Source: Fibrobacterota bacterium | GTDB taxonomy: Bacteria > Fibrobacterota > Fibrobacteria > UBA11236 | Length of the DNA stretch: 64,000 bases | Assembly (NCBI GenBank): GCA_947482115.1 | Contig: CANKII010000001.1 | Coordinates: forward strand, 248,001-312,000 | Direction: 5' to 3' | Shown: piece after piece, positions 4,844 through 31,150 of the stretch | How the letters are laid out: the number at the start of each line of letters is the position of its first letter | Numbering within the stretch: the first letter of the stretch is position 1 | The notes under the pieces: generated by a model | Told to the model about the DNA's origin: nothing | Seen by the model: the letters and a program-made list of their open reading frames with translations, nothing else | The model's database searches: none | Position numbers and translations under genes: made by a program

Positions 4844-5535
4844 ACGGGCCCTATGAACTTGTATCCCGTGCCGTGAATGGACAGGATATATCTTGGCTTT
4901 TTCGGGTTTTCCTCAAGCAATTTCCTGAGTTGCACGATGTGATTGTCCACCGTCCGGCTTTGAATATAGCCTTCGACTCCCCAGATTTTTTGCAGCAACT
5001 CTTCGCGCGTCACGATTTGATTCCGTCGCTCCCACAGTAATTTGAGAATTTGCGCTTCCTTGTAGGTGAGCTTGGTGGTTTTACCCCGCACCTCGGCGGT
5101 GAGCGAGTTGAAATCCACCCGTACTTCTTCAAAACGAGCCTCGTCCGGTGCTTCCCCGGAGGCACGCCACGAACGGCTGCGCAACAGACTGCGGATGTGC
5201 GCGAGCAGGATGTTCAAATCGAAGGGCTTGGTCATGTAATCGTCCGCACCGCTGTCCAAACCTTCGACGATATCTTCCTTGTCGTCACGGGCTGTGAGCA
5301 ACAATACCGGAACGCGGCTGCTATCCGCGCGCACCTTGCGGAGCATTTCGATTCCATTGAGACCGGGAAGCATCCAGTCCAGCACGACGAGATCAAATTC
5401 AGGTCCCTTTTCAATGGCCTCCAACGCCTTCTCGGCATCCGGACACATCACGGTTTCATAGCCTTCAGAACGAAGATTGAATTCCAGCCCCATGGCCAGG
5501 CTGCGATCATCTTCCACAAGGAGAATACGGTTCAT
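4840..5535 (-). CDS. OmpR/PhoB-family response regulator
   Basis: A 231-residue cytoplasmic transcription regulator. The receiver domain (1-120) has acidic residues D9-D10, the phosphoacceptor D53 in VVLDWMLPG, T81 and K103 in TKPF. A C-terminal winged helix (about 135-230) carries the typical recognition region (LLQKIWG..YIQSRTVDNHIVQLRKLLE). All catalytic residues are present. The partner kinase gene lies 8 bases upstream and the metalloprotease gene overlaps downstream. Targets are unknown; the operon context suggests envelope or secretion stress. Confidence 0.93.
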   Translation of the reverse strand: MNRILLVEDDRSLAMGLEFNLRSEGYETVMCPDAEKALEAIEKGPEFDLVVLDWMLPGLNGIEMLRKVRADSSRVPVLLLTARDDKEDIVEGLDSGADDYMTKPFDLNILLAHIRSLLRSRSWRASGEAPDEARFEEVRVDFNSLTAEVRGKTTKLTYKEAQILKLLWERRNQIVTREELLQKIWGVEGYIQSRTVDNHIVQLRKLLEENPKKPRYILSIHGTGYKFIGPV

Positions 5536-18868: not shown

Positions 18869-20266
18869 TTAGTTATGGTAGTACAGTTCGAATTCCACCG
18901 GATTCGGACGAAGTTTGACGGGGGCAATTTCCGCCGACTTCTTGTAATCCAGATAGGCTTCGATGAACTCATCCGTGAAAACATCACCAGCAGTAAGCCA
19001 GCCCTTGTCTTTCTCGAGTTCTTCCATGGCCTGTTCCAAACTGTAGCAGGTCGAAGGCACTTTCTTCAGCTCTTCCGGCGGCAATTCATAGATGTTCTTG
19101 TCGAGGGGTTGACCCGGATCGACCTTGTTCTTGATGCCATCGATCATTGCCATGAGCATGGCGGAGAACGTCAGATAGGCGCTGCCAGAGCTGTCCGGGC
19201 AACGGAACTCAAAACGGCGGGCCTTGTCACCCTGCACATAAGGAATTCGCACCGATGCGGAACGATTCGTGGCGGAGTAGGCGAGGTTCACAGGCGCTTC
19301 GTAACCCGGTACCAAACGGCGGTAGCTGTTGGTAGAGGAGTTCGAGAACGCTTGAATGGACCGACCGTGCTTGAGAATACCGCCAATTGCGTAGATGGCA
19401 GTCTGGCTCATATTGGCATAGCCGTCGCCTGCAAACAAGTTCTTTCCATCTTTCCAGATGGAGGTATGAACGTGCATGCCGCTTCCGTTGTCGCCAAACA
19501 TGGGCTTCGGCATGAACGTAGCCGTTTTACCGTGCTGGTTGGCGGTATTCTTCACAGCATACTTGAGCTTGTGAACCTGATCACCAGCCTTGATAAGAGC
19601 GCCGAATTGAACGCCGATTTCGCACTGGCTTGTCGCGACTTCATGGTGATGGATTTCAGGAACCATTCCCATTTTGATGAGGTTAAGAACCATTTCATCG
19701 CGCAGATCGGAAAGTGTATCGAGTGGGGCAGCCGGAGCGTATCCGAATTTGAATGGAATCTTGTGGCCGCCACTCTCTTCACCGCTGGTCCAGGGACCTT
19801 CGTTGGTGATGATTTCATAGCCGGCTTTATTAGGCATGCTCTCATAACGGATGCCGTCGAACACGAAGAATTCGGGTTCGGGACCAAAAAAGGCTGCGTC
19901 ACCGATGCCGGTGGTCTTGAGATAGGCCAGTGCCTTGTGGGCGATGGAACGCGGATCGCGCTCATACAATTGACCGGTACGCGGTTCCAGAATATCGCAG
20001 AAAAGGCAAAGGGTGGGTACAATGCGGAATGGATCCAGAAAGGCGGATTCCGGATCCGGCTTCATAATCATGTCGGATTTCTCAATCGACTTCCATCCAC
20101 GTATGGAAGAGCCATCAAAGGCCATTCCGTCTTTGAACATGGCATCGTCCAAACGAGCCACGGGAAATGTAAAGTGCTGCAGAATTCCGAACATATCGCC
20201 AAACAGCAAGTCCACGAATTGGATGTTGTTGTCTTTTGCAAGCTTGAAAACGTCATTGGGAGTCAT
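18869..20266 (-). CDS. glnA: Glutamine synthetase, type I
   Basis: Makes glutamine from glutamate, ammonia and ATP; a cytoplasmic dodecamer. The 465-residue protein shows DGSSIRGWKSI near the N-terminus, the glutamate/metal region FGPEPEFFVFD, the GSGMHVHTS loop, NRSASVRIPYV and the C-terminal EFELYYHN. The sequence KNIYELPPEE retains the tyrosine that is adenylylated in GS-I beta enzymes, so control by GlnE-type adenylylation is possible; no glnE or glnB lies in this window. AAGGAG is visible 10 bases before the ATG. It ends at a strong terminator. Confidence 0.97.
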   Translation of the reverse strand: MTPNDVFKLAKDNNIQFVDLLFGDMFGILQHFTFPVARLDDAMFKDGMAFDGSSIRGWKSIEKSDMIMKPDPESAFLDPFRIVPTLCLFCDILEPRTGQLYERDPRSIAHKALAYLKTTGIGDAAFFGPEPEFFVFDGIRYESMPNKAGYEIITNEGPWTSGEESGGHKIPFKFGYAPAAPLDTLSDLRDEMVLNLIKMGMVPEIHHHEVATSQCEIGVQFGALIKAGDQVHKLKYAVKNTANQHGKTATFMPKPMFGDNGSGMHVHTSIWKDGKNLFAGDGYANMSQTAIYAIGGILKHGRSIQAFSNSSTNSYRRLVPGYEAPVNLAYSATNRSASVRIPYVQGDKARRFEFRCPDSSGSAYLTFSAMLMAMIDGIKNKVDPGQPLDKNIYELPPEELKKVPSTCYSLEQAMEELEKDKGWLTAGDVFTDEFIEAYLDYKKSAEIAPVKLRPNPVEFELYYHN

Positions 20267-20455
20267 ACGCGGGACTTCTCCTTGGATGGATTGAGATGAT
20301 GGTTTGAAACCGAGGGGCTAAAATAGAAAGAATCATGCCACGACTAACAAGGTGGAAATGTTAAAAAAATGGGCTTGATCGGATTTTGGTAACAATTTTG
20401 GCATTCCCTGTGTCGTTTTTTGTCAATCGTTGAAATCCAATGGAAAGTAATGGGA

Positions 20456-21022
20456 TTATTGAAAATCCTTGTACAACTGGCTGGCTTGCGGTTCCTTTTG
20501 GCTGGAGTACTTGCCTTTGTAGAAAGACAGCTCTCCGTCTGGAGTCATAAAATAGACCTGTCCAATGCGAACATTGGGATATACTCGAATGGGGTGAACC
20601 ACTTCTATTTCCAAAGTCCAGGTCGGAAACTGGCATTGCAACTGGCCATTTTCATCCGGCATATATCCCCACCCCACGTCTCCGAAACCGGCGGTGATAT
20701 GGGTGTTGATTCCGAGGCGGCCAATGCTGGAACGTCCCTCGAACATGGGAACGTACCGCCGACTGGTGGCGGTTTCATTGCTGCAGCCGATATAAAGCGT
20801 TCCCGGCTTTAGCACTAAACCCTCGGGTGGAATGGTGATGCCATGGCTGGGGTTGTTTTTTTTCATGTCCAGTGCTTCGCCGGGAGCAAGATCGTAAAGC
20901 AACAGCTTGGCGTTCAAAGTGACATCGTAAGAGTTCGGACCCACATGGGCGGGTTGGAAAGGGGCGATATGGATGTTGCCTAATTCCATTTGCCGAATGA
21001 TTTCAGGACCGGTGAGCACCAT
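20456..21022 (-). CDS. dcd: dCTP deaminase
   Basis: Deaminates dCTP to dUTP, the main source of dTMP precursors in many bacteria. The 188-residue protein carries VGPNSYDVTLN, EGRSSIGRLGINTHITAGFGDVGWG and, after a short insertion, TWTLEIEVV with the catalytic glutamate. The segment between GDVGWG and TLE is about 14 residues longer than in E. coli Dcd (YMPDENGQLQCQFP), so it belongs to a variant subgroup. It lies 189 bases upstream of glnA on the same strand and is divergent from the envelope operon at 21103; the shared 80-base region probably holds both promoters. Confidence 0.9.
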   Translation of the reverse strand: MVLTGPEIIRQMELGNIHIAPFQPAHVGPNSYDVTLNAKLLLYDLAPGEALDMKKNNPSHGITIPPEGLVLKPGTLYIGCSNETATSRRYVPMFEGRSSIGRLGINTHITAGFGDVGWGYMPDENGQLQCQFPTWTLEIEVVHPIRVYPNVRIGQVYFMTPDGELSFYKGKYSSQKEPQASQLYKDFQ

Positions 21023-21102
21023 GGGAATTCATGTCTTTCGTTTTTACAGGTCCATTTTTTACAGATGGCTTAATTTAACGCCTTTGTAAGTTGGATTCAA
21101 CG

Positions 21103-22344
21103 ATGAGATGGCCTAACCTCATATTATGCATGCCGCTGGTTTTCCCTGCGTGTCCTCCGGTACAAGCCTTGGGGATTCTGGAATTGCGGGTTCCGGTTTC
21201 GGATGGTGGGGGCGGGCAGATTGAGGCGTCCCTCGCGGTTGCTTTTCCAGATTCACTTTCAGGCACGGATGTGCATGCGCTCTTGACGGCGGTTTCCGGC
21301 ACGCAAACGGTTTTACTGCCCGGTGGTCAACTGCGGACCGTGGAAGCGGATTTTGTGGAAGGCTTGCGTGCCTTTTCAAAAGGAGGGTCCCCTCAAAAAG
21401 CAGATTCCTTGTGGGCTCGACTTCGTGGACGTCGATTGGAACCGGCGCTTCAAAGCGCATTCAATGTAAACATGGGATTTTTGTTGTGTCTCAGAGGAGA
21501 CACCAGGAATGCTGAAACCCTGTGGAAAAGGGAATGGAACAGAGCCGCTCCGGCGCGGGAAGCCGCATGGCGCAATTTGTTGGCGCTGTATCTGGCGCAA
21601 CGAAATTTTGAAACCGCGAACCGGTTGGTGGACAGGGTGTTGGGTGAGCAGCCACACAATCGCCTGGCAGCTTTGGCAAAGGCCTCTTTGCTAAAACAAC
21701 TCCGTCCGGATGCCGAATGGGAGGCTTTTCTGCGTTCAAAATCCGCTCCCGAAGATTCCATGCCTTACATGCAAATAGCCTACGGAGAAGTATTGATATC
21801 GCAAAAACGTTATTCCCAGGCCGTCAAGTTATTGGATCGCGGCTTGGTGAATTTACCCGGGGAGGGAAGGGGATGGCTTTTACTCGCCGAGGCCCAATAT
21901 CATCTGGGGTACTACTACTTCGCTTTGGATTGCCTGCAAAACGCCGAACGTTCCGGGTATCATGAGGCCGATATATACGAGCTATACGCCAATGTGCTGA
22001 GAGGTTGTTGCATGAACGAAGAAGACACCCGGGCGGCGCAGTCGCTTAAAACGGTGGAGCATATTTTGGAAGAGGGATTTCCGAAAGATTTTCACCGCCG
22101 TTCCATGGCCCAGCTTCTTTACCACATATATTGCCAGAATCTGAAACCCGAAGCTGCCAGGCGGTTGAAGGAAAATTTCTGGTTTCACTTCGAGGGGCCG
22201 GGTCAAACACCCCCTGTTTTCGGCCATGATGCATGGCCGAATGCTGGCTTGGAATCCATCGGTTTGAAGATTCGATTTGGTTTGCATGATTTTCAATGGG
22301 TCATGGCTTTGAGGGATGACAATTTCTATCAGGCCTTTTACTAG
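21103..22344 (+). CDS. Exported TPR-like repeat protein
   Basis: I prefer ATG 21103 over TTG 21091 because it gives a short signal peptide (RWPNLILCMPLVFPACPPVQA). From 21103 the protein has 413 residues. The middle is made of helical pairs in the TPR style: SAFNVNMGFLLCLRGDTRNAETLW, AWRNLLALYLAQRNFETANRLV, MQIAYGEVLISQKRYSQAVKLLDRG and GWLLLAEAQYHLGYYYFALD (each shown shortened). The function is unknown; such proteins often assemble envelope complexes. It is the first gene of a four-gene plus-strand operon (gap to the next gene 48 bases, then overlaps), all encoding exported proteins. Confidence 0.7.
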   Translation: MRWPNLILCMPLVFPACPPVQALGILELRVPVSDGGGGQIEASLAVAFPDSLSGTDVHALLTAVSGTQTVLLPGGQLRTVEADFVEGLRAFSKGGSPQKADSLWARLRGRRLEPALQSAFNVNMGFLLCLRGDTRNAETLWKREWNRAAPAREAAWRNLLALYLAQRNFETANRLVDRVLGEQPHNRLAALAKASLLKQLRPDAEWEAFLRSKSAPEDSMPYMQIAYGEVLISQKRYSQAVKLLDRGLVNLPGEGRGWLLLAEAQYHLGYYYFALDCLQNAERSGYHEADIYELYANVLRGCCMNEEDTRAAQSLKTVEHILEEGFPKDFHRRSMAQLLYHIYCQNLKPEAARRLKENFWFHFEGPGQTPPVFGHDAWPNAGLESIGLKIRFGLHDFQWVMALRDDNFYQAFY

Positions 22345-22392
22345 TTTCCAACGCGGTATTGGAACGGAAACTTTGAAGCGCAAGGAGGGCAT

Positions 22393-23679
22393 ATGCATCC
22401 TGGGCACCGGCAACCCGGTTTCCTGTTCACACTGGCCATAAGTCTGCTGCTTTTCGTTTCCAGTTCAGTGTATGGGAGCGGGTTAAGACTGGGGAAACGC
22501 GCAGATTTCAAGGCTTGCAATGATGTGGTGCCATTAACAGGTCATCCAATGGTGGTGAATGCCCCGATTCTGAAGTACACGATTACTTCATTCAACCCTA
22601 ATTGGTTTAACGACAATTCGGGCCAACCAAGCTCTCCCTTGTTTACGGCAACGCTTTCCTCCAGCTTGGTTCCTTACACGACAAACAACCGTCTTACAAT
22701 GAGTGTCTACGTCTGGGCTGATACAAATTTGACCCATAAGAACCCTCTTGCATCACCGGTTCAGGCATTCAAGCACAATGTTTCTTTGGATGAAGCGCAC
22801 ATTGGATTTTTGACGTCGAGTGACATTTTCGCCCTACCGGTTGTACCAGGTGATATAGGAGTTGATTTCAAAGGCAGCGATCTTTACAATCTGGTCATGG
22901 TACAGCACCAAGTACCTCCTCTGAATCTTCATATTGAGCTTGCACTACTTTGCGGTGGAGTTGCTGTGACGGAAGGCGGGGTGAATGTAAAATTCGACTC
23001 GGCTGCGAGCCTGCGCTTTGTTCACACCCTGCAGGCTTTGTCTCCCGGAACCGATGTGGGGAATTCTCGTGCGGTGCCCATTTACACCCTGAGTCCTGTT
23101 TTCCGTGTGGTCTCGGACCTGCTCAGCAATAGCGAGTTTAACTATCCAAGCGACGAACCCAAGATGGAAATATTCATCTATCAATTGCAAGAGGGTCAGC
23201 AACCCAAGGACGCTTTGAATGGAACCGAGTTCGCACGATTCCCGGTCACAAGCAACGGGACTGTTAGCTACCCGTCCGATTTGCCAATTCTGATTCCGGG
23301 CAAGAGTTACATCTGGCGTGTAAGGGGACTTTTGCGAGGAACCACCAACGAATACATCTTTTCCAACACCCTGTATTTCCTCGTGGACCCGCGTCTTGCC
23401 GGAGGTTCGAGTCTCACTTCCCCCAGTATTCTTTCGGATCCGAAGGCCTTTGCCCAGGAAGTTCGATTTGGAGATGATTATGTGAAACGCGTCCTTGCCG
23501 CGCTGAAACTCATTTTGGGTGAGAACTATGAAGTGTTGGCACTGTCTCACATCGAGAAGATTCCAGCCAAAGGACAAATCCGGTTGAACGGACATCCTTA
23601 TTCCCTTGAGGAATTGGAGCGATTGGCACAGGAGTTTCACCAAAGTCATCACAGTCTGACCCGGTTGAGGTTCCAATGA
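22393..23679 (+). CDS. Exported beta-rich protein with fibronectin-like segment
   Basis: A 428-residue protein not assigned to a family. The N-terminus is a signal peptide (FLFTLAISLLLFVSSSVYG). AAGGAGG lies before the ATG. The sequence is beta-rich; the part around residues 290-335 (LIPGKSYIWRVRGLLRGTTNEYIFSNTLYFLV, shown broken) has the look of a fibronectin type III strand pair, and the C-terminal 60 residues are charged and helical (VKRVLAALKLILGENYEVL). It overlaps the next gene by 4 bases. Its place between a TPR-like and a FecR-like protein suggests a role in an envelope complex, but this is inference. Confidence 0.62.
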   Translation: MHPGHRQPGFLFTLAISLLLFVSSSVYGSGLRLGKRADFKACNDVVPLTGHPMVVNAPILKYTITSFNPNWFNDNSGQPSSPLFTATLSSSLVPYTTNNRLTMSVYVWADTNLTHKNPLASPVQAFKHNVSLDEAHIGFLTSSDIFALPVVPGDIGVDFKGSDLYNLVMVQHQVPPLNLHIELALLCGGVAVTEGGVNVKFDSAASLRFVHTLQALSPGTDVGNSRAVPIYTLSPVFRVVSDLLSNSEFNYPSDEPKMEIFIYQLQEGQQPKDALNGTEFARFPVTSNGTVSYPSDLPILIPGKSYIWRVRGLLRGTTNEYIFSNTLYFLVDPRLAGGSSLTSPSILSDPKAFAQEVRFGDDYVKRVLAALKLILGENYEVLALSHIEKIPAKGQIRLNGHPYSLEELERLAQEFHQSHHSLTRLRFQ

Positions 23680-24350
23680 AATATTCATGGGTTCTTCTTT
23701 GCGGAATGCTTTCCCTGACATGGGGAAAACCGGCTCCCCGTGAACCTTACATGGCAGTAGTGCGCCAAGTTTTGGGAGGCGTGCAAACTTTTGGACGGGA
23801 CACGACTCTGGCTTCCGGAATAAAAATTGGAGACCTGCCACCGAGCGGACAGACATTTGAAATTCCTGAAAACGGTCAACTCGTCATTCGCTTTCATCCG
23901 GATTACATGAGGATAGAGGCGCGTTCCAAAACGCGTTTTCTGTTGGGCTATTCCAGCATGGACTCGACCCGGGTCCGTACCGTACATATGGAAAAAGGAC
24001 AAATGGTGCTGGGCGTTCCCAAACGTTCGCCCCCCTTGCAGGCCGAGGATGCCAGTTGTTGGGTGCGGGCCAAAGATGCCCGTTATGCCATGAACACCGA
24101 TGGAGCCGGGTCCACTGTTATTGTGCTTGAGGGTGTGGTGGAAATGCACAATCGAGCCAAGGACATCACGGAGTTTGTGCATCACGGTCAAAAGGCGGTT
24201 TCCGATGCGACGGGACTGAGAATCAGCGATGCAGCGGCCAATGAGCTCGCGCAGGTGGGATTGGGACAAAACATTCTCGAAGTGGATTTCTGGAACCCCT
24301 CGACGGAAGAATTCAGCACGCTCGAAGTGGAGTATGAGAACAACTTCTAG
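23676..24350 (+). CDS. FecR-domain-like exported protein
   Basis: A 224-residue protein with a signal peptide (KYSWVLLCGMLSLTWG). The region 25-150 shows the pattern of a FecR domain: VVRQVLGGVQTFG, then IPENGQLVIRFHPDYMRIEARSKTRFLL shortened here, and GSTVIVLEGVVEMHN. Classical FecR transmits iron-siderophore signals to a sigma factor, but stand-alone FecR-like domains occur in many periplasmic proteins and no FecI-like sigma factor is present here. Start and stop overlap both neighbours (4 bases upstream, 17 bases downstream), so translation is tightly coupled in the operon. Confidence 0.68.
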   Translation: MKYSWVLLCGMLSLTWGKPAPREPYMAVVRQVLGGVQTFGRDTTLASGIKIGDLPPSGQTFEIPENGQLVIRFHPDYMRIEARSKTRFLLGYSSMDSTRVRTVHMEKGQMVLGVPKRSPPLQAEDASCWVRAKDARYAMNTDGAGSTVIVLEGVVEMHNRAKDITEFVHHGQKAVSDATGLRISDAAANELAQVGLGQNILEVDFWNPSTEEFSTLEVEYENNF

Positions 24351-26556
24351 TCTCTCATTCTGCCTGCTTCTTTGCGCAGTATCCCTTTTTGCGCAGGTAC
24401 CCGCCGACAGTTCGGTGGTGGCAGAAAGTACCGTCGATTCCAACGCCTCTTCCGTGTCTTTTGTGATGCCGGCCGAGGGCGACGTCTTTTATTCCTCCGA
24501 TGTGAAAATAGTGGCTCATGTTCAGGGACCCGTGCCCCCGGCAATGCTGGCGGTACTGGACGGTTTCGCACTGGACAAGCCCATTCAAGTCGAAAACGGG
24601 ATTTTGACGGTGGAGCTATACGATCTTGCGCAGGGTGTTCATGAATTCAAATTGCTTTTTCTGGATGATCACAAGCACATCACGTTAAGCCAAATCGTCC
24701 GTTTCTTCATTCGAGTTCCCGAACCGCGGCGCGATGCTACGAAGGGAAAATTCCGCCAGTTCGGAAGTGTCAAGGCGCAGGCTGAGTGGAAGGGCGAGGA
24801 TGCTGCGAGCCGTATCATGCAACAATCCGAAGTGCTGGACATCATAACGTTTTATGACCCCGTTGCAGATGAATATTTTGACAGCGCCCTTACTGGAAAA
24901 GCGGAGAAACCGATTTCAAAAAACCTCAATGCCGGGACCCAGGTGACCTATAATTTCAAAGATGGGCGTTGGGAAGGCTATGTCAGCGGTCTTTTAAGCA
25001 CGGATGAAAGCCGTTTCCGACAGCCGGTCGATCGTTTTTCCGGTAGTGTCACCTTCGGTCCGTGGGCCTCCATCAAGGGTGGCGACGTTTATCCCAGCTA
25101 CAACTCCATGGTGTTGAACGGAACCCGCGTTCGTGGGACGGAAGTAAGCGCAGCCGTGGTGACAGGGGATAGCGCGATTCATTGGGCGTATGTCAAGGCA
25201 ACCACGGGTGAAACCCGCCGTGAGGTTCCCGCCTATGTGGTTCGAACGGAAGCCCCCAGTGAATCGCTCGGATACCGGGATGATATTATACCGGGAACTT
25301 TGGCGCAAAAACTTTCGGCAGTGCGCCTCGGATTCGGAGGAGGTCCGACTTTTGATTTGGGAATCACTGTTATGAAGGCTTCAGACCTGAGGGGGGATAG
25401 TTTATATGAATTCATAAATGGCGATCTCTACGGAGTTCGTCCGGTGGAAAACCTTGTCACCGGTGTCGACAGCCGGCTCGGCTTGTGGGACGGCAGGATT
25501 CAGATCTACGGCCAGTGGGCCATCAGTCTTTATACGCAGGATCGATCTCTGGGCGCATTCAATGCGGATACGGCGGGAAAGAGTTTCAATCCCAAGAAGT
25601 ACGAGGATATTTTCACCATCAATCCGACCACCAGTGGCTGGGAGTATTTGCTGACAGGGGGTGGGACCAAACCGGATTACAAGGGTTTTGTGGACGCCAA
25701 CAGCACCTATTCCATGGGATTCAGCACTTCAATTCCTTTTTCATCGGGTCTGGTTTATGAAACCGATGCCAGTTATACCCATTTGGGCGCGGAGTATCAC
25801 AGCGAGGGCAATCCTTTTTTGGGATCGAATCCGGGCAATGGTTGGGACCTCCAACAGCGGCTGGCTTTGCTGGAAAACCGTTTGAATCTGGGTCTTGAAG
25901 GTTCAAATTTCGAACAGGACCTCGGGATTTACGAACAACTGCAGCGCTCCTTCAAAGGGGAGGTACGGTTTTCACCAGGAGCCTATCAGCCCGCTGTCTG
26001 GTTGAACGGCGGTGTGACCGCTCAAATTCCACGCGGAAATTCCCCATTTCAATACACCCAGGACTTTGATGAATTGAACGTCGGTGGTTTCCATCAATTC
26101 AAACTGGGACAGGGGAGCCTTCACCTTTCGACACAATACGGCTATACCTACAGCAAACTGACCTTGGAGACAGACACCTCTTCGGCCGCATTGCAAAACA
26201 GCCCCGCCACACAGACCCATAATGTGAACACGACTTTCCAGTACAAATTCAGGGGATCAAATTTTCAACCCAAGTTGTCGTACACCTATTCCAATAATGG
26301 GGTCCAAAAACCCACCAACAATTTGATCTTGGGAATTCAGGACGCCTTTCTGGAAAAAAGATTCCGCATGGACGTCAACTTTTTGATGGGGCAGTATCCG
26401 AAATCCGTTACCAAAAACGACCTGAGTTTCGGCGAAAATCTGACGTTGTCCTACGCCATTGGGGACAAGCAATCGGTGCGCTGTAATGAACGCTGGTCCA
26501 AATACGGAACGAGAACCAGCATCACTTCGGGCGCTTATTACGAAATGTTCTTCTAA
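24334..26556 (+). CDS. Outer-membrane beta-barrel protein with N-terminal Ig-like domain
   Basis: The ATG at 24334 gives a good signal peptide (RTTSSLSFCLLLCAVSLFAQ) and 740 residues; the longer frame upstream overlaps the FecR-like gene too deeply. Residues about 35-135 form an Ig-like domain (VMPAEGDVFYSSDVKIVAHV). The remaining 550 residues have alternating hydrophobic and aromatic strands (TQVTYNFKDGRWEGYVSGLL, QFKLGQGSLHLSTQYGYTYS) and the protein ends in ...SGAYYEMFF, with a terminal phenylalanine typical of outer-membrane barrels. It is the last gene of the operon. The function is unknown; an outer-membrane channel or assembly platform for the other three products is plausible. Confidence 0.68.
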   Translation: MRTTSSLSFCLLLCAVSLFAQVPADSSVVAESTVDSNASSVSFVMPAEGDVFYSSDVKIVAHVQGPVPPAMLAVLDGFALDKPIQVENGILTVELYDLAQGVHEFKLLFLDDHKHITLSQIVRFFIRVPEPRRDATKGKFRQFGSVKAQAEWKGEDAASRIMQQSEVLDIITFYDPVADEYFDSALTGKAEKPISKNLNAGTQVTYNFKDGRWEGYVSGLLSTDESRFRQPVDRFSGSVTFGPWASIKGGDVYPSYNSMVLNGTRVRGTEVSAAVVTGDSAIHWAYVKATTGETRREVPAYVVRTEAPSESLGYRDDIIPGTLAQKLSAVRLGFGGGPTFDLGITVMKASDLRGDSLYEFINGDLYGVRPVENLVTGVDSRLGLWDGRIQIYGQWAISLYTQDRSLGAFNADTAGKSFNPKKYEDIFTINPTTSGWEYLLTGGGTKPDYKGFVDANSTYSMGFSTSIPFSSGLVYETDASYTHLGAEYHSEGNPFLGSNPGNGWDLQQRLALLENRLNLGLEGSNFEQDLGIYEQLQRSFKGEVRFSPGAYQPAVWLNGGVTAQIPRGNSPFQYTQDFDELNVGGFHQFKLGQGSLHLSTQYGYTYSKLTLETDTSSAALQNSPATQTHNVNTTFQYKFRGSNFQPKLSYTYSNNGVQKPTNNLILGIQDAFLEKRFRMDVNFLMGQYPKSVTKNDLSFGENLTLSYAIGDKQSVRCNERWSKYGTRTSITSGAYYEMFF

Positions 26557-26701
26557 GGCTATTGGGCCTTATACCTGCAATTCGGTGTTTTACATCACCA
26601 ACCCCCGTTTTTAGCCCAAATATGGGATGCGGTCGTTATGTTTTAGCGGCGAATTGGCATGTTTCGGGGTAGTTTTAAAAGCAATTCACGCAGGAGACCC
26701 C

Positions 26702-27220
26702 ATGAAGAACTTGTTTTATACCGCCCTCTTTGCAACTGTCTTTTTCGGTTTCGCGGCCAAGGATGCCAATGCGAATCAGGTCAAGAAATCGAAGTCGAAT
26801 GTGTCAAACAATCGTGCTTCGGCTGCAGATACCGTGCGTGACAATGACTCCGACGGCGATGGAGTTCCAACTGCCGCCGCAAAAGTAAATACCACTGCCG
26901 GTGAAGTATGCGATGATGGCAATGACAACTCGGAAGATTGCCACAAGGCGAACAAGGATTATAGTACGGATCCTTACGTCGAAACAACTCAGCGCGATCG
27001 CGCCTCGGGTTTGCCCACTGGAAAGCGAATGCACAAACCCATGGCAGTAACCCAAGAAACGAATACTGTTGGAACCGCGACAAGTGCATCCGCTGAGAAA
27101 TTATGTCCGGGTTCGCCCAACTGCCCTCCAGAACCGTCTGAACCCACTGCCAGACCTGGATCGGATCCCTTCAAGGGCACTAATGTTGCGAATACGAAGA
27201 AAAAAAAAGAGAGTAAATAG
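26702..27220 (+). CDS. Small exported modular protein, paralog 1 of 5
   Basis: A 172-residue unrecognised protein. ATG 26702 has AGGAG 6 bases upstream and gives a signal peptide (KNLFYTALFATVFFGFAAKDANA). The mature part is polar and probably disordered. Modules in order: KKSKSNVSNNRAS; an acidic calcium-like stretch DNDSDGDGVPTAAAKVN with GEVCDDGNDNSEDC, which resembles the cysteine-rich repeats of myxobacterial proteins; RDRASGLPTGKRMHKPM (26993-27043); and EKLCPGSPNCPPEP. The same modules recur in other combinations in the next genes. It begins a five-gene tandem family 145 bases after the beta-barrel gene. Confidence 0.75.
   Translation: MKNLFYTALFATVFFGFAAKDANANQVKKSKSNVSNNRASAADTVRDNDSDGDGVPTAAAKVNTTAGEVCDDGNDNSEDCHKANKDYSTDPYVETTQRDRASGLPTGKRMHKPMAVTQETNTVGTATSASAEKLCPGSPNCPPEPSEPTARPGSDPFKGTNVANTKKKKESK
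26846..26941 (+). repeat. 96-base direct repeat, copy A (inside paralog 1)
   Basis: Matches 28650-28745 with 8 differences in 96 bases by hand count. It encodes DSDGDGVPTAAAKVN...CDDGN..SEDC. Confidence 0.85.
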
Positions 27221-27255
27221 AGTCTCGAAAGTTCACTCACAAAAAGGAGTTCCAA

Positions 27256-27921
27256 ATGAAAAACATGCATTACACCGCCACCTTTGCCGCAGTCTTTTTC
27301 GGCTTGGCAATATTGAATGCGGGAGCAGTGAACCCGGTAAAGACATCCAAATCGAATGTTTCAAATAACCGTGCTGCCGCCGTCTCCGATCCCAAGGATG
27401 AGGATTGTGATGGCAGAGCCGATGCTCCCGATTGTAAGAGCGCGGATGTAACATCACCCCGCGATCATGCATCCGGCCTGCCCACGGGCAAGCGTATGCA
27501 CAAACCCATGGTGATCACCAAGGAACTGGATAAGTCCACAACGGCTCCCGGAGACCAAACCGCACCACAAACATCGAATCGGGAATCCAGCGCTCCATCC
27601 ATCTCGGAAGTGGTTGTGACAAAACCCATGGATCAATCGAGCGACCCTTCAACCGCACCCGCCACTGGAACCGTCTCTTCACCACGTGATGCGGCGTCGG
27701 GACAGGCCACCGGAAAGCGACAGCACAAGCCCATGATGCCGCCGCGTGACGCCTCTTCCGGCATGGCGACTGGAAGAATGGCCGAAGGTACCGATCCAAA
27801 CAGTGGGTCGAACGGAAATGGCGGTCAGCCGGCCAGTTTTACCTACCCGATCCTTCCCGCGATCAAGAGCACCTTGGTGTCCATGCCGGAAACCGATCCC
27901 ACTTTGGAAATCAAACGATAA
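27256..27921 (+). CDS. Small exported modular protein, paralog 2 of 5, with Hcp-like motifs
   Basis: A 221-residue protein; AAGGAG precedes the ATG. The signal peptide (KNMHYTATFAAVFFGLAILNAGA) is nearly identical to that of paralog 4. The mature part starts KTSKSNVSNNRAA. It holds three copies of one motif: RDHASGLPTGKRMHKPM (27460-27510, residues 69-85), RDAASGQATGKRQHKPM (27685-27735, residues 144-160) and a shortened RDASSGMATGR (from 27745). The first copy continues VITKELDKSTT, which closely resembles the corresponding segment of Hcp/TssD proteins as I remember them. The remainder is Ser/Thr/Pro-rich and probably disordered, so the protein cannot be a full Hcp ring subunit. The function is unknown. 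Confidence 0.75.
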   Translation: MKNMHYTATFAAVFFGLAILNAGAVNPVKTSKSNVSNNRAAAVSDPKDEDCDGRADAPDCKSADVTSPRDHASGLPTGKRMHKPMVITKELDKSTTAPGDQTAPQTSNRESSAPSISEVVVTKPMDQSSDPSTAPATGTVSSPRDAASGQATGKRQHKPMMPPRDASSGMATGRMAEGTDPNSGSNGNGGQPASFTYPILPAIKSTLVSMPETDPTLEIKR

Positions 27922-27954
27922 GGTCTGATGATTAACAACACCCGGAGGGGCCAA

Positions 27955-28452
27955 ATGAAAAATTTGTTTTTCACCGCAACTGTTGCCGGCATCTTTTTCG
28001 GATTCGCTTTCGAAGCCAATGCAGCAGGCATTTCCACGTCACGCAGTAACATTCGAACCAAGTCCAAGATGATGGGAGATAGTGTGGCAAACCCGGCCTC
28101 GGATGATGCCATGCAGAGTGATGTAAAGTCTCCGCGCGATCCTGCCAGTGGACAGGCGACAGGCAAACGAAGCAAGCGTTCCGAAGCCGAATTGAATTTG
28201 AATGCCATTGGAAAAAAGGGCGGTAAAGCCGGAACCAGCTCGAGCGGTGGCGAAGAATTACCAAAGGAGTCGCTCGAACAGGCTGCGCCCCCAACGAGCT
28301 CCGGCGCACCCGTTTCAAGTCCTGAAGCCTCGATGGAAAAATTATGTCCTGGATCGCCTAATTGCCCCCCAGAACCTGCGGAAGCGAAAACCACCCCAAA
28401 ACCCATCCGAAAACCAAAACCCAGCGATTATGATCTGAAGGAAATGAAATAA
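27955..28452 (+). CDS. Small exported modular protein, paralog 3 of 5
   Basis: A 165-residue protein. I choose ATG 27955 (GGAGGGG 6 bases upstream; signal peptide KNLFFTATVAGIFFGFAFEANA) over the upstream ATG 27928. The mature part contains TSRSNIRTKSKMM, then RDPASGQATGKRSKRSE at residues 61-77, where the usual HKPM end is replaced by KRSE. It ends with EKLCPGSPNCPPEPAE and a lysine- and proline-rich tail. It shares the CPGSPNCPPEP module with paralog 1 but lacks the acidic CDDGN module. Probably disordered. Function unknown. Confidence 0.73.
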   Translation: MKNLFFTATVAGIFFGFAFEANAAGISTSRSNIRTKSKMMGDSVANPASDDAMQSDVKSPRDPASGQATGKRSKRSEAELNLNAIGKKGGKAGTSSSGGEELPKESLEQAAPPTSSGAPVSSPEASMEKLCPGSPNCPPEPAEAKTTPKPIRKPKPSDYDLKEMK

Positions 28453-28466
28453 TAAAGGCGTTCCAT

Positions 28467-28967
28467 ATGAAAAACTTGTTTTACACCGCCACTTTTGCCG
28501 CTTTCTTTTTCGGCCTCGCCACTCTGAATGCTGGATCAGCGGGTAATATCTCACTGGGTAAGGTCAAAAGAGTAGCGGGTCAGATCGAAACATCAAAATC
28601 CAATGTTTCAAATAATCCCGCCGCGATGAGTGACACCTTGCGAGATCCCGATTCGGACGGCGATGGAGTTCCAACTGCCGCTGCAAAAGTAAATGCCACT
28701 GCCGGTGAAGAATGCGATGATGGCAATAGCAACTCGGAGGATTGCAAGCGTGATCAGGCATCCGGCCTGCCCACCGGAAGACGCATGCATAAACCTTCTG
28801 CGGCCAAGGCTGGCTGTACGATTCCTCCCAATTGTCCCATAGGGTCTAGCATTATGGATGACTGCACTTGCGTGCCACCTGGGAAGGCCACAACAGGCAC
28901 GGCTTCTCCCGGTGATACAACTCCTTCCTCTCCGGCTAAAAGATTGCTTCCCACTGTGAATAAATAA
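28467..28967 (+). CDS. Small exported modular protein, paralog 4 of 5
   Basis: A 166-residue protein with signal peptide KNLFYTATFAAFFFGLATLNAGSA. The mature part holds TSKSNVSNNPAA, then the acidic module RDPDSDGDGVPTAAAKVN and GEECDDGNSNSEDC almost identical to paralog 1, then RDQASGLPTGRRMHKPS from residue 95, and a cysteine-containing end (CTIPPNCP...DDCTCVPPG). It has the spacing AAAGG...ATG in its leader, with only 14 bases after the previous stop. Cysteines suggest disulfides outside the cytoplasm. Function unknown. Confidence 0.74.
   Translation: MKNLFYTATFAAFFFGLATLNAGSAGNISLGKVKRVAGQIETSKSNVSNNPAAMSDTLRDPDSDGDGVPTAAAKVNATAGEECDDGNSNSEDCKRDQASGLPTGRRMHKPSAAKAGCTIPPNCPIGSSIMDDCTCVPPGKATTGTASPGDTTPSSPAKRLLPTVNK
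28650..28745 (+). repeat. 96-base direct repeat, copy B (inside paralog 4)
   Basis: Partner of 26846-26941; about 92% identical by hand count. Two other paralogs lie between the two copies and lack this segment. Confidence 0.85.
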
Positions 28968-29000
28968 TTCTGAATCGAGCCATCCAAAACAGGAGCCTCA

Positions 29001-29450
29001 ATGAAAAGCTTGTTTTGCGCCATGATTGTGGCAGCCGTCTTTTTAGTTTTGACAATATCGGACTTGTCGGCTGCCGCACAGCCCATTCCTGGCGTGGATA
29101 TTAGTGCCAAGAAAAATCCGGGGGGAGTGCGTTCCAAACCCACGGCAATGGCGCCGAACGATACCGGAAACAGTGGCGCTGAAGGATCCCAACAAGTTGC
29201 TCAATTGGACTCGAATGGGGCCTCCGCCCCAATCACGCCATCCATGTCTAAAAAGATGAGACCGCGGAGTGCTGTTTTAAATGGCAATGCTGACGCAGGT
29301 TCTCCACCGGTTGATCCGAGTCCTCCCACTGGCTTTAACAATGGGGACTGCAAGAAAATGTGCATCAAGGAAGAGGCATGTAAGTGCGATGAACACTTCG
29401 TCAATTGCCACTGCGTTATTCCAGGCTTGCCTGAGCGAGGCGGGCAATAA
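29001..29450 (+). CDS. Small exported protein, diverged paralog 5 of 5
   Basis: A 149-residue protein with AGGAG before the ATG and a signal peptide (KSLFCAMIVAAVFLVLTISDLSAA) that is clearly a diverged form of the family's. It lacks the TGKRxHKP motif. The middle is Ser/Pro/Asn-rich, and the C-terminus is a cysteine cluster, C-x3-C-x5-C-x-C with a further CHC, within DCKKMCIKEEACKCDEH and FVNCHCVIPG. It could be a small disulfide-bonded or metal-binding end domain. It is the last gene of the tandem and is convergent with the His-rich lipoprotein gene. Confidence 0.68.
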   Translation: MKSLFCAMIVAAVFLVLTISDLSAAAQPIPGVDISAKKNPGGVRSKPTAMAPNDTGNSGAEGSQQVAQLDSNGASAPITPSMSKKMRPRSAVLNGNADAGSPPVDPSPPTGFNNGDCKKMCIKEEACKCDEHFVNCHCVIPGLPERGGQ

Positions 29451-29472
29451 ATCCGTTGTTCCCGCTTTTTTC

Positions 29473-29952
29473 TTAAACGTGCCTTGGAATAATGGCCGTG
29501 CTCACCATTGCGAACGTAACTATGTGAGTATGGGCAATGGTGGAGGTTGAAGTTTTAGACACGAGTTTTCCGGCTTTAATGTCAGCCATGTCCTGTCCAG
29601 TTAGCGCGATTGTATGAGTGTGAGGCGCACTTCCTTGAATATCCAAGGCGGCAATAGCACCTCCATTATCCAACTGAACACCCGTAACAGTTGCTACATG
29701 CCCATGGTTGGCGCTGATGGTTTCTGCGGTTCTGTCCGCCGTTGCAACAGCATGAGTGGTTGCCTGCTGTTGTGAAGTACCCGGAGCATCGGGCATTATG
29801 GGATTGCCAAGTGCATTGGTATTTGAATTTCCCGATATCGAGGTATTGTCATCGCACCCCATGATCTGTATCGCGATGCCCGCAAACAACGCTCTCGCTG
29901 TGGCTCCGAGAAATTCCCGACGGTTTAAGTCTTTTTTGATTGGGTTTTCCAT
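29473..29952 (-). CDS. Histidine-rich Tat-exported lipoprotein
   Basis: A 159-residue protein with a twin-arginine motif NRREFLG at residues 10-16 followed by a hydrophobic stretch and a lipobox IQIMGC with C33. The mature part is Ser/Thr/Asn-rich at first, then has repeated histidine pairs: NHGHVATV, APHTHTIAL and IAHTHIVTF, spaced by GQDMADIKAGKLV. Similar HxHxV-repeat domains occur in myxobacterial and other exported proteins in my memory, and the histidines suggest metal binding, copper or zinc. No enzyme signature is present. It is convergent with the modular protein cluster, with 22 bases between the stops. Confidence 0.68.
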   Translation of the reverse strand: MENPIKKDLNRREFLGATARALFAGIAIQIMGCDDNTSISGNSNTNALGNPIMPDAPGTSQQQATTHAVATADRTAETISANHGHVATVTGVQLDNGGAIAALDIQGSAPHTHTIALTGQDMADIKAGKLVSKTSTSTIAHTHIVTFAMVSTAIIPRHV

Positions 29953-30031
29953 TTTGACCTCAAGTCTTAAAAGGTTACTCGCAGTTTGTGAGGATAATTC
30001 ATTTCAATATTAAAAAAGATAAATACGTGTT

Positions 30032-31150
30032 TTATCCAGCGGTCGTTAGGCCATTCCTGCGCCACGGTGAGAACGCATCCAGTTTCGCCGGAGTCTTCTC
30101 CCCGTTGAGCAATGCGGACATGCAACGTGCCGCCATGGGAGCAAGACTAATCCCGCTCTTGTAATGTCCTGTGCATAAAGCAATTCCGGCTTTTTCATTC
30201 ACCCATCCCATGAGTGGCAGGCGATCCGCAGTGCGCGGACGCAAACCACTCCATGTTTCGGACCAGACAGGTTTCACATTTGGAAAAAAAGCTTGAAGTC
30301 GATTTTGTAAATAAGTGTCCCCCTCGTCGTCAAAATCCTCGTTCCATTTCCCGGATTCCGTTGTGGCTCCACAGACAAGTTGATCTCCACGCGGAACCAG
30401 ATAGATTTTTTCTGCGCAATGAATCATCGATTTTTGGACGTGAAAATTGGGCAACATTGCGAGTTGACCTTTTACGGGAATCAACGGCACGGCCAACCCC
30501 AGTAATGCCAATACATCGTTGCACCAGGCTCCAGCCGCGATAAGAACCTGACGGGTCTGCACATTCCAGACTTCACCGGAGAGCACGGATTCATCCTTTG
30601 TCACGGACCATGAGATGGGTTTGGCATTCAGAAAATCCACACCCCGTTGGCGGAGAGCCGTTTCCAATGCTTCGAGAAGAAGGCGGTTGTTCACGCTGGC
30701 TTCGTTTGGAAAATGAAACACCTTCGCATTTTGAATCGAAGCATGAGGTCGCAAAAAGGAGGGTAATTCGCTTGATATGGAAAAATCGGAAGCCTTTTCA
30801 CGGATCAATTGCTTTTCCTGAAGCTTGAATGCCTGAAGCGATTCCCTGTTGTCCAAAGGAAAAATTTGATAATCCCCGCTGCGTTCAAAAGACACGGACC
30901 TTCCGGACTCCAATTCGATACGTGCCAGCCAGTCCGAGTAGCCGTACAAGGAGCGCAAATACATTTCGCGCAGGGGAGAGTTGCCAATCACCCCAGCCCG
31001 GGCCACCAAAATTCCGGCTGCGGCCCACGAAGCTTTATGACCGATGGGATTGGGATCGATGACCACAACGCGTTTCCCGCGCATGGCCTCCTCAAAGGCG
31101 CAGGACAATCCCATAATGCCGCCGCCCAATACGGCGAGGTCGTATTTCAT
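30032..31150 (-). CDS. FAD-dependent glycine oxidase-like enzyme (ThiO type)
   Basis: A 372-residue flavoprotein of the D-amino-acid oxidase superfamily. The N-terminal Rossmann motif GGGIMGLSCA binds FAD; SWAAAGIL follows, and the C-terminal GLRPRTADRLPLMGW with CTGHYKSGISLAPM matches ThiO proteins. ThiO makes dehydroglycine for thiamine thiazole synthesis in some bacteria; no other thiamine gene is nearby, so another amine substrate is possible. The start overlaps the stop of the M20 peptidase by 4 bases. Together with the two upstream peptidases it may take part in peptide and amino-acid use. Confidence 0.83.
   Translation of the reverse strand: MKYDLAVLGGGIMGLSCAFEEAMRGKRVVVIDPNPIGHKASWAAAGILVARAGVIGNSPLREMYLRSLYGYSDWLARIELESGRSVSFERSGDYQIFPLDNRESLQAFKLQEKQLIREKASDFSISSELPSFLRPHASIQNAKVFHFPNEASVNNRLLLEALETALRQRGVDFLNAKPISWSVTKDESVLSGEVWNVQTRQVLIAAGAWCNDVLALLGLAVPLIPVKGQLAMLPNFHVQKSMIHCAEKIYLVPRGDQLVCGATTESGKWNEDFDDEGDTYLQNRLQAFFPNVKPVWSETWSGLRPRTADRLPLMGWVNEKAGIALCTGHYKSGISLAPMAARCMSALLNGEKTPAKLDAFSPWRRNGLTTAG

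What the first reader, a model, noticed from the sequence alone, without database searches (positions are those of the whole stretch)
26702..29450. Tandem family of five small exported proteins built from shuffled modules
Five consecutive genes share near-identical signal peptides and leader sequences but combine a few modules in different order: SKSNVSNN, the acidic DSDGDGVPT/CDDGN block, RDxASGxxTGKRxHKP and CPGSPNCPPEP. The mature proteins look disordered and fit no family I know. Such combinatorial paralogs suggest a variable extracellular set, for example substrates or structural parts handled by a common machine. The four-gene exported operon just upstream could be that machine. The modules are seen; the role is inference.
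Basis: partly seen in the sequence, partly recalled or inferred. Interest (0 to 1): 0.85.

Follow-up and report, generated by a model that had tools for sequence, protein, structure and literature searches.

The report
Exported proteins carrying T6SS-tube loop peptides
A small Fibrobacteria genus makes a tandem set of short, unstructured exported proteins that carry detached copies of one surface loop of the type VI secretion tube protein Hcp, although these genomes lack that weapon, and similar loop-only exported proteins turn up in about five other bacterial phyla.

Summary
The cluster is real: five consecutive genes with ribosome-binding sites and Sec-type signal peptides. Two details need correcting: module presence and copy number vary, but order does not, and gene 5 has none of the named modules. 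One module is not new: RDxASGxxTGKRxHKP is the extended L2,3 loop of the type VI secretion tube protein Hcp/TssD (Pfam E 3e-8; 26 of 30 residues as in a sister-genus Hcp). Only this loop is present, up to three times per protein; gene 2's product is predicted to have no fold, while an Hcp control folds well. The own genus lacks Hcp and the T6SS sheath. Loop copies differ at most synonymous sites (dN/dS about 0.18), so the peptide is under selection. The upstream operon is not a dedicated machine: all six sister-genus genomes keep it without the cluster, and further members lie at two other loci of this genome. Outside the phylum, 28 loop-only, mostly signal-peptide-bearing proteins were found, 23 in genomes without a T6SS sheath; some share further exact 8-12-residue words with the genus family. 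Most likely these are exported disordered scaffolds displaying docking peptides; that function is inferred, not shown.

The parts
26702..27220 (+). gene 1 (s1): signal peptide, SKSNVSNN, acidic DSDGDG..CDDGN block, one Hcp loop, CPGSPNCPPEP
   Evidence: start at 26702 rather than 26627 because of AGGAG and the MKNLF start shared with the paralogs
26993..27043 (+). Hcp extended-loop copy in gene 1 (RDRASGLPTGKRMHKPM)
   Evidence: local Hcp profile E 5e-9, model positions 42-66 of 162; coordinates
26846..26923 (+). acidic DxDGDG..CDDGN block of gene 1
   Evidence: 92% DNA identity to the block of gene 4
27256..27921 (+). gene 2 (s2): signal peptide, SKSNVSNN, DEDCDG word, Hcp loop, RESSAPSISEVVVTK word, two more Hcp loops
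   Evidence: PF05638 E 2.9e-8, TIGR03344 E 2.2e-7, phmmer to Hcp3 3he1 E 3e-5
27454..27540 (+). longest Hcp loop copy (SPRDHASGLPTGKRMHKPMVITKELDKST)
   Evidence: E 2e-16, model positions 36-69
27679..27735 (+). second Hcp loop copy of gene 2
   Evidence: E 2e-6, model positions 39-59
27742..27777 (+). third, partial Hcp loop copy of gene 2 (PRDASSGMATGR)
   Evidence: weak on its own, E 0.1
27955..28452 (+). gene 3 (s3): signal peptide, AGISTSRSNIR, one Hcp loop, CPGSPNCPPEP
28129..28170 (+). Hcp loop copy in gene 3 (SPRDPASGQATGKR)
   Evidence: E 6e-4
28467..28967 (+). gene 4 (s4): signal peptide, SKSNVSNN, acidic block, one Hcp loop, Cys/Pro word, C-terminal RLLPTVNK
28749..28796 (+). Hcp loop copy in gene 4 (RDQASGLPTGRRMHKP)
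   Evidence: E 3e-6
29001..29450 (+). gene 5 (s5): signal peptide and a Cys-rich C-terminus, no Hcp loop and no named module
21091..26556 (+). upstream operon TPR / unknown 428 aa / FecR-like / outer-membrane-barrel-like; neighbour, not part of the finding
   Evidence: Pfam TPR and FecR; conserved in the sister genus without the cluster

Best explanation
Shown: a genus-level, tandemly duplicated family of proteins with Sec-type signal peptides, charge-balanced and (for gene 2) without predicted fold, built from short portable peptides. The commonest is the extended (L2,3) loop of the T6SS tube protein Hcp without the Hcp barrel; a [KR]SN word usually follows shortly after the signal peptide, and acidic DxDGDG/DxDCDG and Cys/Pro words are added in varying sets. 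Inferred mechanism: in Hcp this loop is a contact between stacked rings, so the detached loop most likely still acts as a docking peptide, displayed outside the cytoplasm in one to three copies on a flexible chain and binding an acceptor surface in the envelope or on other cells. Duplication and gain or loss of words diversify the set. No T6SS of its own is needed.
For: Loop identity: PF05638 E 2.9e-8, TIGR03344, Hcp3 structure, 26 of 30 residues as in sister-genus Hcp. Loop only: Hcp profile positions about 36-69 of 162, lying between strands 30-36 and 59-64 of the Hcp model. No fold: gene 2 pLDDT 52 against 85 for the Hcp control. Peptide-level selection: 59% of same-residue codons differ, median dN/dS about 0.18. 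Signal peptides and ribosome-binding sites. No Hcp or TssC in the genus. Same architecture in 28 outside proteins, 23 in TssC-less genomes. The loop is a ring-stacking contact in Burkholderia Hcp1 (PMC4650826) and is needed for effector delivery in E. coli (PMC5874247).
Against: No partner is known and no expression data exist. The loop might need the barrel to hold its shape. dN/dS rests on 13-codon segments with saturated synonymous sites in many pairs. Gene 5 lacks the loop. Disorder was predicted by AlphaFold2 for one protein only, from nine sequences.
Confidence: 0.42

Rival explanations
1. Anti-T6SS decoys: the exported loops mimic the ring-to-ring contact of Hcp and interfere with tubes or free Hcp from attacking bacteria.
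For: The loop is the ring-stacking contact (PMC4650826); the sister genus carries T6SS whose Hcp has a nearly identical loop; loop-only proteins sit mostly in genomes without TssC.
Against: Tubes assemble inside the attacker, so an exported peptide meets them only after firing; the other words have no T6SS link; no defence family matches.
Confidence: 0.15
2. Leftovers: Sec-exported Hcp-fold proteins decayed by duplication and deletion to loop remnants, kept by inertia with little function.
For: Exported full or partial Hcps exist outside T6SS genomes and look like intermediates (L113, L117, L120, L126, L146).
Against: Synonymous divergence with conserved residues across copies and genomes, repeated loop copies within one chain, identical words across phyla with different codons.
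Confidence: 0.2
3. Substrates or structural parts handled by the upstream TPR/FecR/barrel operon.
For: Adjacent in G000, G002 and G003; both absent in G001.
Against: The operon is kept without the cluster in six of six sister-genus genomes; other family members in the own genome lie elsewhere.
Confidence: 0.08
4. Diverged but complete Hcp homologs in which only the loop is still recognisable.
For: The loop is among the best conserved parts of this Hcp subtype.
Against: Up to three loops in one chain; no strands predicted for gene 2 while an Hcp control folds well from seven sequences.
Confidence: 0.04

Closest known systems
Hcp / TssD, tube protein of type VI secretion (PF05638, TIGR03344)
   Same: The RDxASGxxTGKRxHKP segment is its extended L2,3 loop.
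   Different: No barrel, loop repeated, signal peptide present, no T6SS in the genus.
Loop-only exported proteins in Acidobacteriota, Bacteroidota/Ignavibacteria, Pseudomonadota, Gemmatimonadota and UBP7 (e.g. L110, L116, L119, L124, L128, L145; unnamed)
   Same: Signal peptide and one or more bare Hcp loops in a mosaic of words; an Ignavibacteria tandem pair also shares RESSAPS, RLLPTVNK and DEDCDG.
   Different: Word sets and lengths differ (about 90 to 2,600 aa) and most were found as single genes.
Sec-exported full-length Hcp homologs (L117, L120, L131; unnamed)
   Same: Signal peptide plus the same loop.
   Different: They keep the whole Hcp fold.
MopE-type / FG-GAP / EF-hand-like acidic loops (PF11617, PF13517)
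   Same: DxDCDG, DVNGDG and DSDGDG words resemble them.
   Different: Matches are below the curated cut-offs.

Membership tests
Hcp/TssD (PF05638, TIGR03344) | sequence match to the profile | tested here: met
   Gene 2: PF05638 34.5 bits against a cut-off of 23.5; but TIGR03344 30.9 against 58.9, and over the loop only
Hcp/TssD (PF05638, TIGR03344) | complete beta-barrel fold | tested here: not met
   18-34 of 162 profile positions covered in genes 1-4; no strands predicted for gene 2
Hcp/TssD (PF05638, TIGR03344) | encoded in a genome with T6SS machinery | tested here: not met
   No TssC/VipB in the four genomes of the genus
Hcp/TssD (PF05638, TIGR03344) | hexamer and tube formation, T6SS-dependent release | not testable with these tools
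   needs protein; unlikely without the barrel
MopE-type metal-binding motif (PF11617) | profile match above cut-off | tested here: not met
   Gene 2 at 15.5 bits against 27
Loop-only exported protein class (proposed here) | signal peptide and at least one Hcp loop without barrel | tested here: met
   Genes 1-4; gene 5 does not meet the loop criterion
Anti-phage defence components (PADLOC) | profile match | tested here: not met
   No match for cluster or upstream operon at E up to 0.01

The most novel reading that the evidence does not exclude
A cross-phylum class of exported, disordered proteins is assembled from a shared vocabulary of portable short peptides kept by selection; the Hcp extended loop is one word that works on its own, outside any T6SS, as an extracellular docking or decoy peptide, and the window cluster is a tandem, diversified set of them.
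Probability: 0.3. Interest if true: 0.85.

Novelty: new variant of a known kind. Interest (0 to 1): 0.66.

Why it matters
It shows that the loop by which T6SS tube rings stack also exists as a free-standing module in exported proteins, mostly in bacteria without a T6SS sheath, and that identical 8-12-residue words recur in otherwise unrelated exported proteins of different phyla while their codons differ. That is unexpected for disordered sequence and gives a concrete set of peptides to test. It also warns that a Pfam Hcp call on a short protein does not mean a T6SS.

Tried and rejected
No relatives in plasmids, phages or viral contigs, so a mobile-element origin is not supported. PHROGs, NCBIfam and PADLOC gave nothing convincing for the other modules. 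No Rfam family in 20000-31000. Promoter and terminator scans were no better than shuffles. The nine-sequence alignment was too diverse for a collection scan; a loop-linker-loop alignment was used instead. The RESS word had no PDB match, so my hunch that it is an alternative Hcp loop is untested. A second-locus protein searched in 39 genomes found the SRSN word only in two already known proteins, so that word is not spread over those genomes. The notebook's early figure of about 15 phyla was too high; record titles support about five besides Fibrobacterota. Literature: no paper in the open library holds these peptides, and searches for exported Hcp outside T6SS found nothing on point.

Full report
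1. The observation. Five consecutive + strand genes lie at 26702-27220, 27256-27921, 27955-28452, 28467-28967 and 29001-29450. All have a purine-rich ribosome-binding stretch and a signal-peptide-like N-terminus. Genes 1-4 share modules; gene 5 shares only its place and its type of signal peptide. Module order in genes 1-4 is constant, and only presence and copy number vary, so 'shuffled' is too strong for the window. In the relative G003 the order does differ.

2. One module is known. Pfam finds T6SS_HCP in gene 2 (E 2.9e-8, two stretches) and NCBIfam finds the Hcp1 family over residues 64-95 (E 2.2e-7). The best solved structure is Pseudomonas Hcp3, again over residues 64-95. A profile built from seven sister-genus Hcps covers only positions about 34-69 of 162 in genes 1-4, three times in gene 2. 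In the sister-genus Hcp model this segment is the loop between strands 30-36 and 59-64, and that model matches Hcp structures in the PDB. The same loop protrudes about 20 angstroms from the barrel in EvpC (PMC2944823), is a ring-stacking contact in Burkholderia Hcp1 (PMC4650826) and is needed for effector delivery in E. coli (PMC5874247).

3. It is only the loop. AlphaFold2 gives gene 2 a mean pLDDT of 52 with no structure beyond the signal peptide, while the Hcp control with seven sequences reaches 85. The mature proteins are charge-balanced (K+R against D+E 22/22, 23/23, 22/19, 16/16, 13/13) and more than half P, S, T, G, A, N. Only gene 2 was folded; the others are judged by composition.

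4. The peptide is under selection. Among 14 loop copies of the genus, 59% of codons that encode the same residue differ, with a median dN/dS of about 0.18 over 53 usable pairs of 13 codons each (short segments with saturated synonymous sites, so rough). The acidic block of genes 1 and 4 is 92% identical in DNA, which suggests a recent duplication or conversion, while the loops of genes 1, 2 and 4 are 73-82% identical.

5. Genomic setting. The closest named records belong to Fibrobacteria (L107 is the G003 locus). The own genus (G000-G003) has no full Hcp and no TssC; all six sister-genus genomes have TssC and Hcp (split over two contigs in one). The cluster lies between the barrel gene of the upstream operon and a thiO-like gene. 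In the sister genus these two genes are within about 85 bases of each other and the cluster is missing. G002 has three such genes and G003 one with three loops; G001 has neither operon nor cluster. Further family members in the own genome lie at G000:C1 about 668,000 (two genes) and G000:C3 about 158,700. The upstream operon is therefore not a dedicated machine.

6. Beyond the phylum. A scan of 84,980 species genomes with a loop-linker-loop query gave 41 loci, two of them G003 and G002. Of the rest, 28 encode proteins with the loop but not the barrel, 24 of them flagged with a signal peptide by a simple rule, from Acidobacteriota, Bacteroidota (including Ignavibacteria), Pseudomonadota, Gemmatimonadota and UBP7 by record title. 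TssC was missing from 23 of their 28 genomes; many are draft assemblies, so absence is not proof. The other 11 are full or partial Hcps, several with signal peptides; three of those 11 genomes have TssC. Because the query was the loop, these counts do not measure how common such proteins are.

7. Shared words other than the loop. With loops masked, the genus proteins share 26 exact words of six or more residues with the outside proteins, against a mean of 1.9 and a maximum of 6 in 200 shuffles; the longest are KTKTKSNQSNDR, AGISTSRSNIR and QDHNSSRSNK, while no shuffle gave a word above 8 residues. Codons mostly differ. An Ignavibacteria tandem pair carries RESSAPS, the loop, RLLPTVNK and DEDCDG. 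What these words do is unknown.

8. Mechanism. Shown or strongly supported: export signals, lack of predicted fold in gene 2, loop identity, selection on the peptide, lack of an own T6SS, independence from the upstream operon. Inferred: that the free loop docks to a partner outside the cytoplasm. Rivals are decoys against T6SS, leftovers of exported Hcp, substrates of the operon, and cryptic full Hcps; the evidence is listed under each.

9. Novelty. Tandem families of exported modular paralogs are a known kind of thing, and the loop comes from a known family; loop-only exported derivatives in T6SS-less genomes were not found described in the open library searched, which lacks most subscription journals. 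I therefore file it as a new variant and give the stronger cross-phylum reading separately at 0.3.

Noticed in passing
L053 about 4910-4930 (G002, minus strand): A run of ten A right after the signal peptide puts the second gene of G002 out of frame with its own signal peptide: either an assembly error or a slippage site.
   Followed up: no
L117, L120, L126, L131, L137, L142: Full or partial Hcp homologs with N-terminal signal peptides or lipoprotein-like starts, mostly in genomes without TssC; Hcp outside T6SS seems under-described.
   Followed up: partly
L108, L121, L127, L139: Proteins of 1,000-2,600 aa sprinkled with the loop and other words, including an AILIGLLLPAVQKVREAAAR pilin-like word (L121) and a kinase-like HRDLAARN word (L127; also in the small proteins of L123 and L145).
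   Followed up: partly
G000:C1:668001-669140 (L083) and G000:C3:158730-159430 (L105): Three more exported members of the family in the own genome, with QDHNSSRSNKT, HAINTKGTG, RKAFVxPHVLEKSG and KTKTKSNQSNDR words.
   Followed up: yes
window 21091-26556: TPR / unknown / FecR-like / barrel operon conserved in the family between dcd-glnA and thiO; its last three genes are duplicated in G002 (L053).
   Followed up: partly
window 29473-29952 (-): Small protein with a Tat-like start (NRREFLGA) and His-rich HTHT motifs, possibly metal binding; no convincing family match.
   Followed up: no
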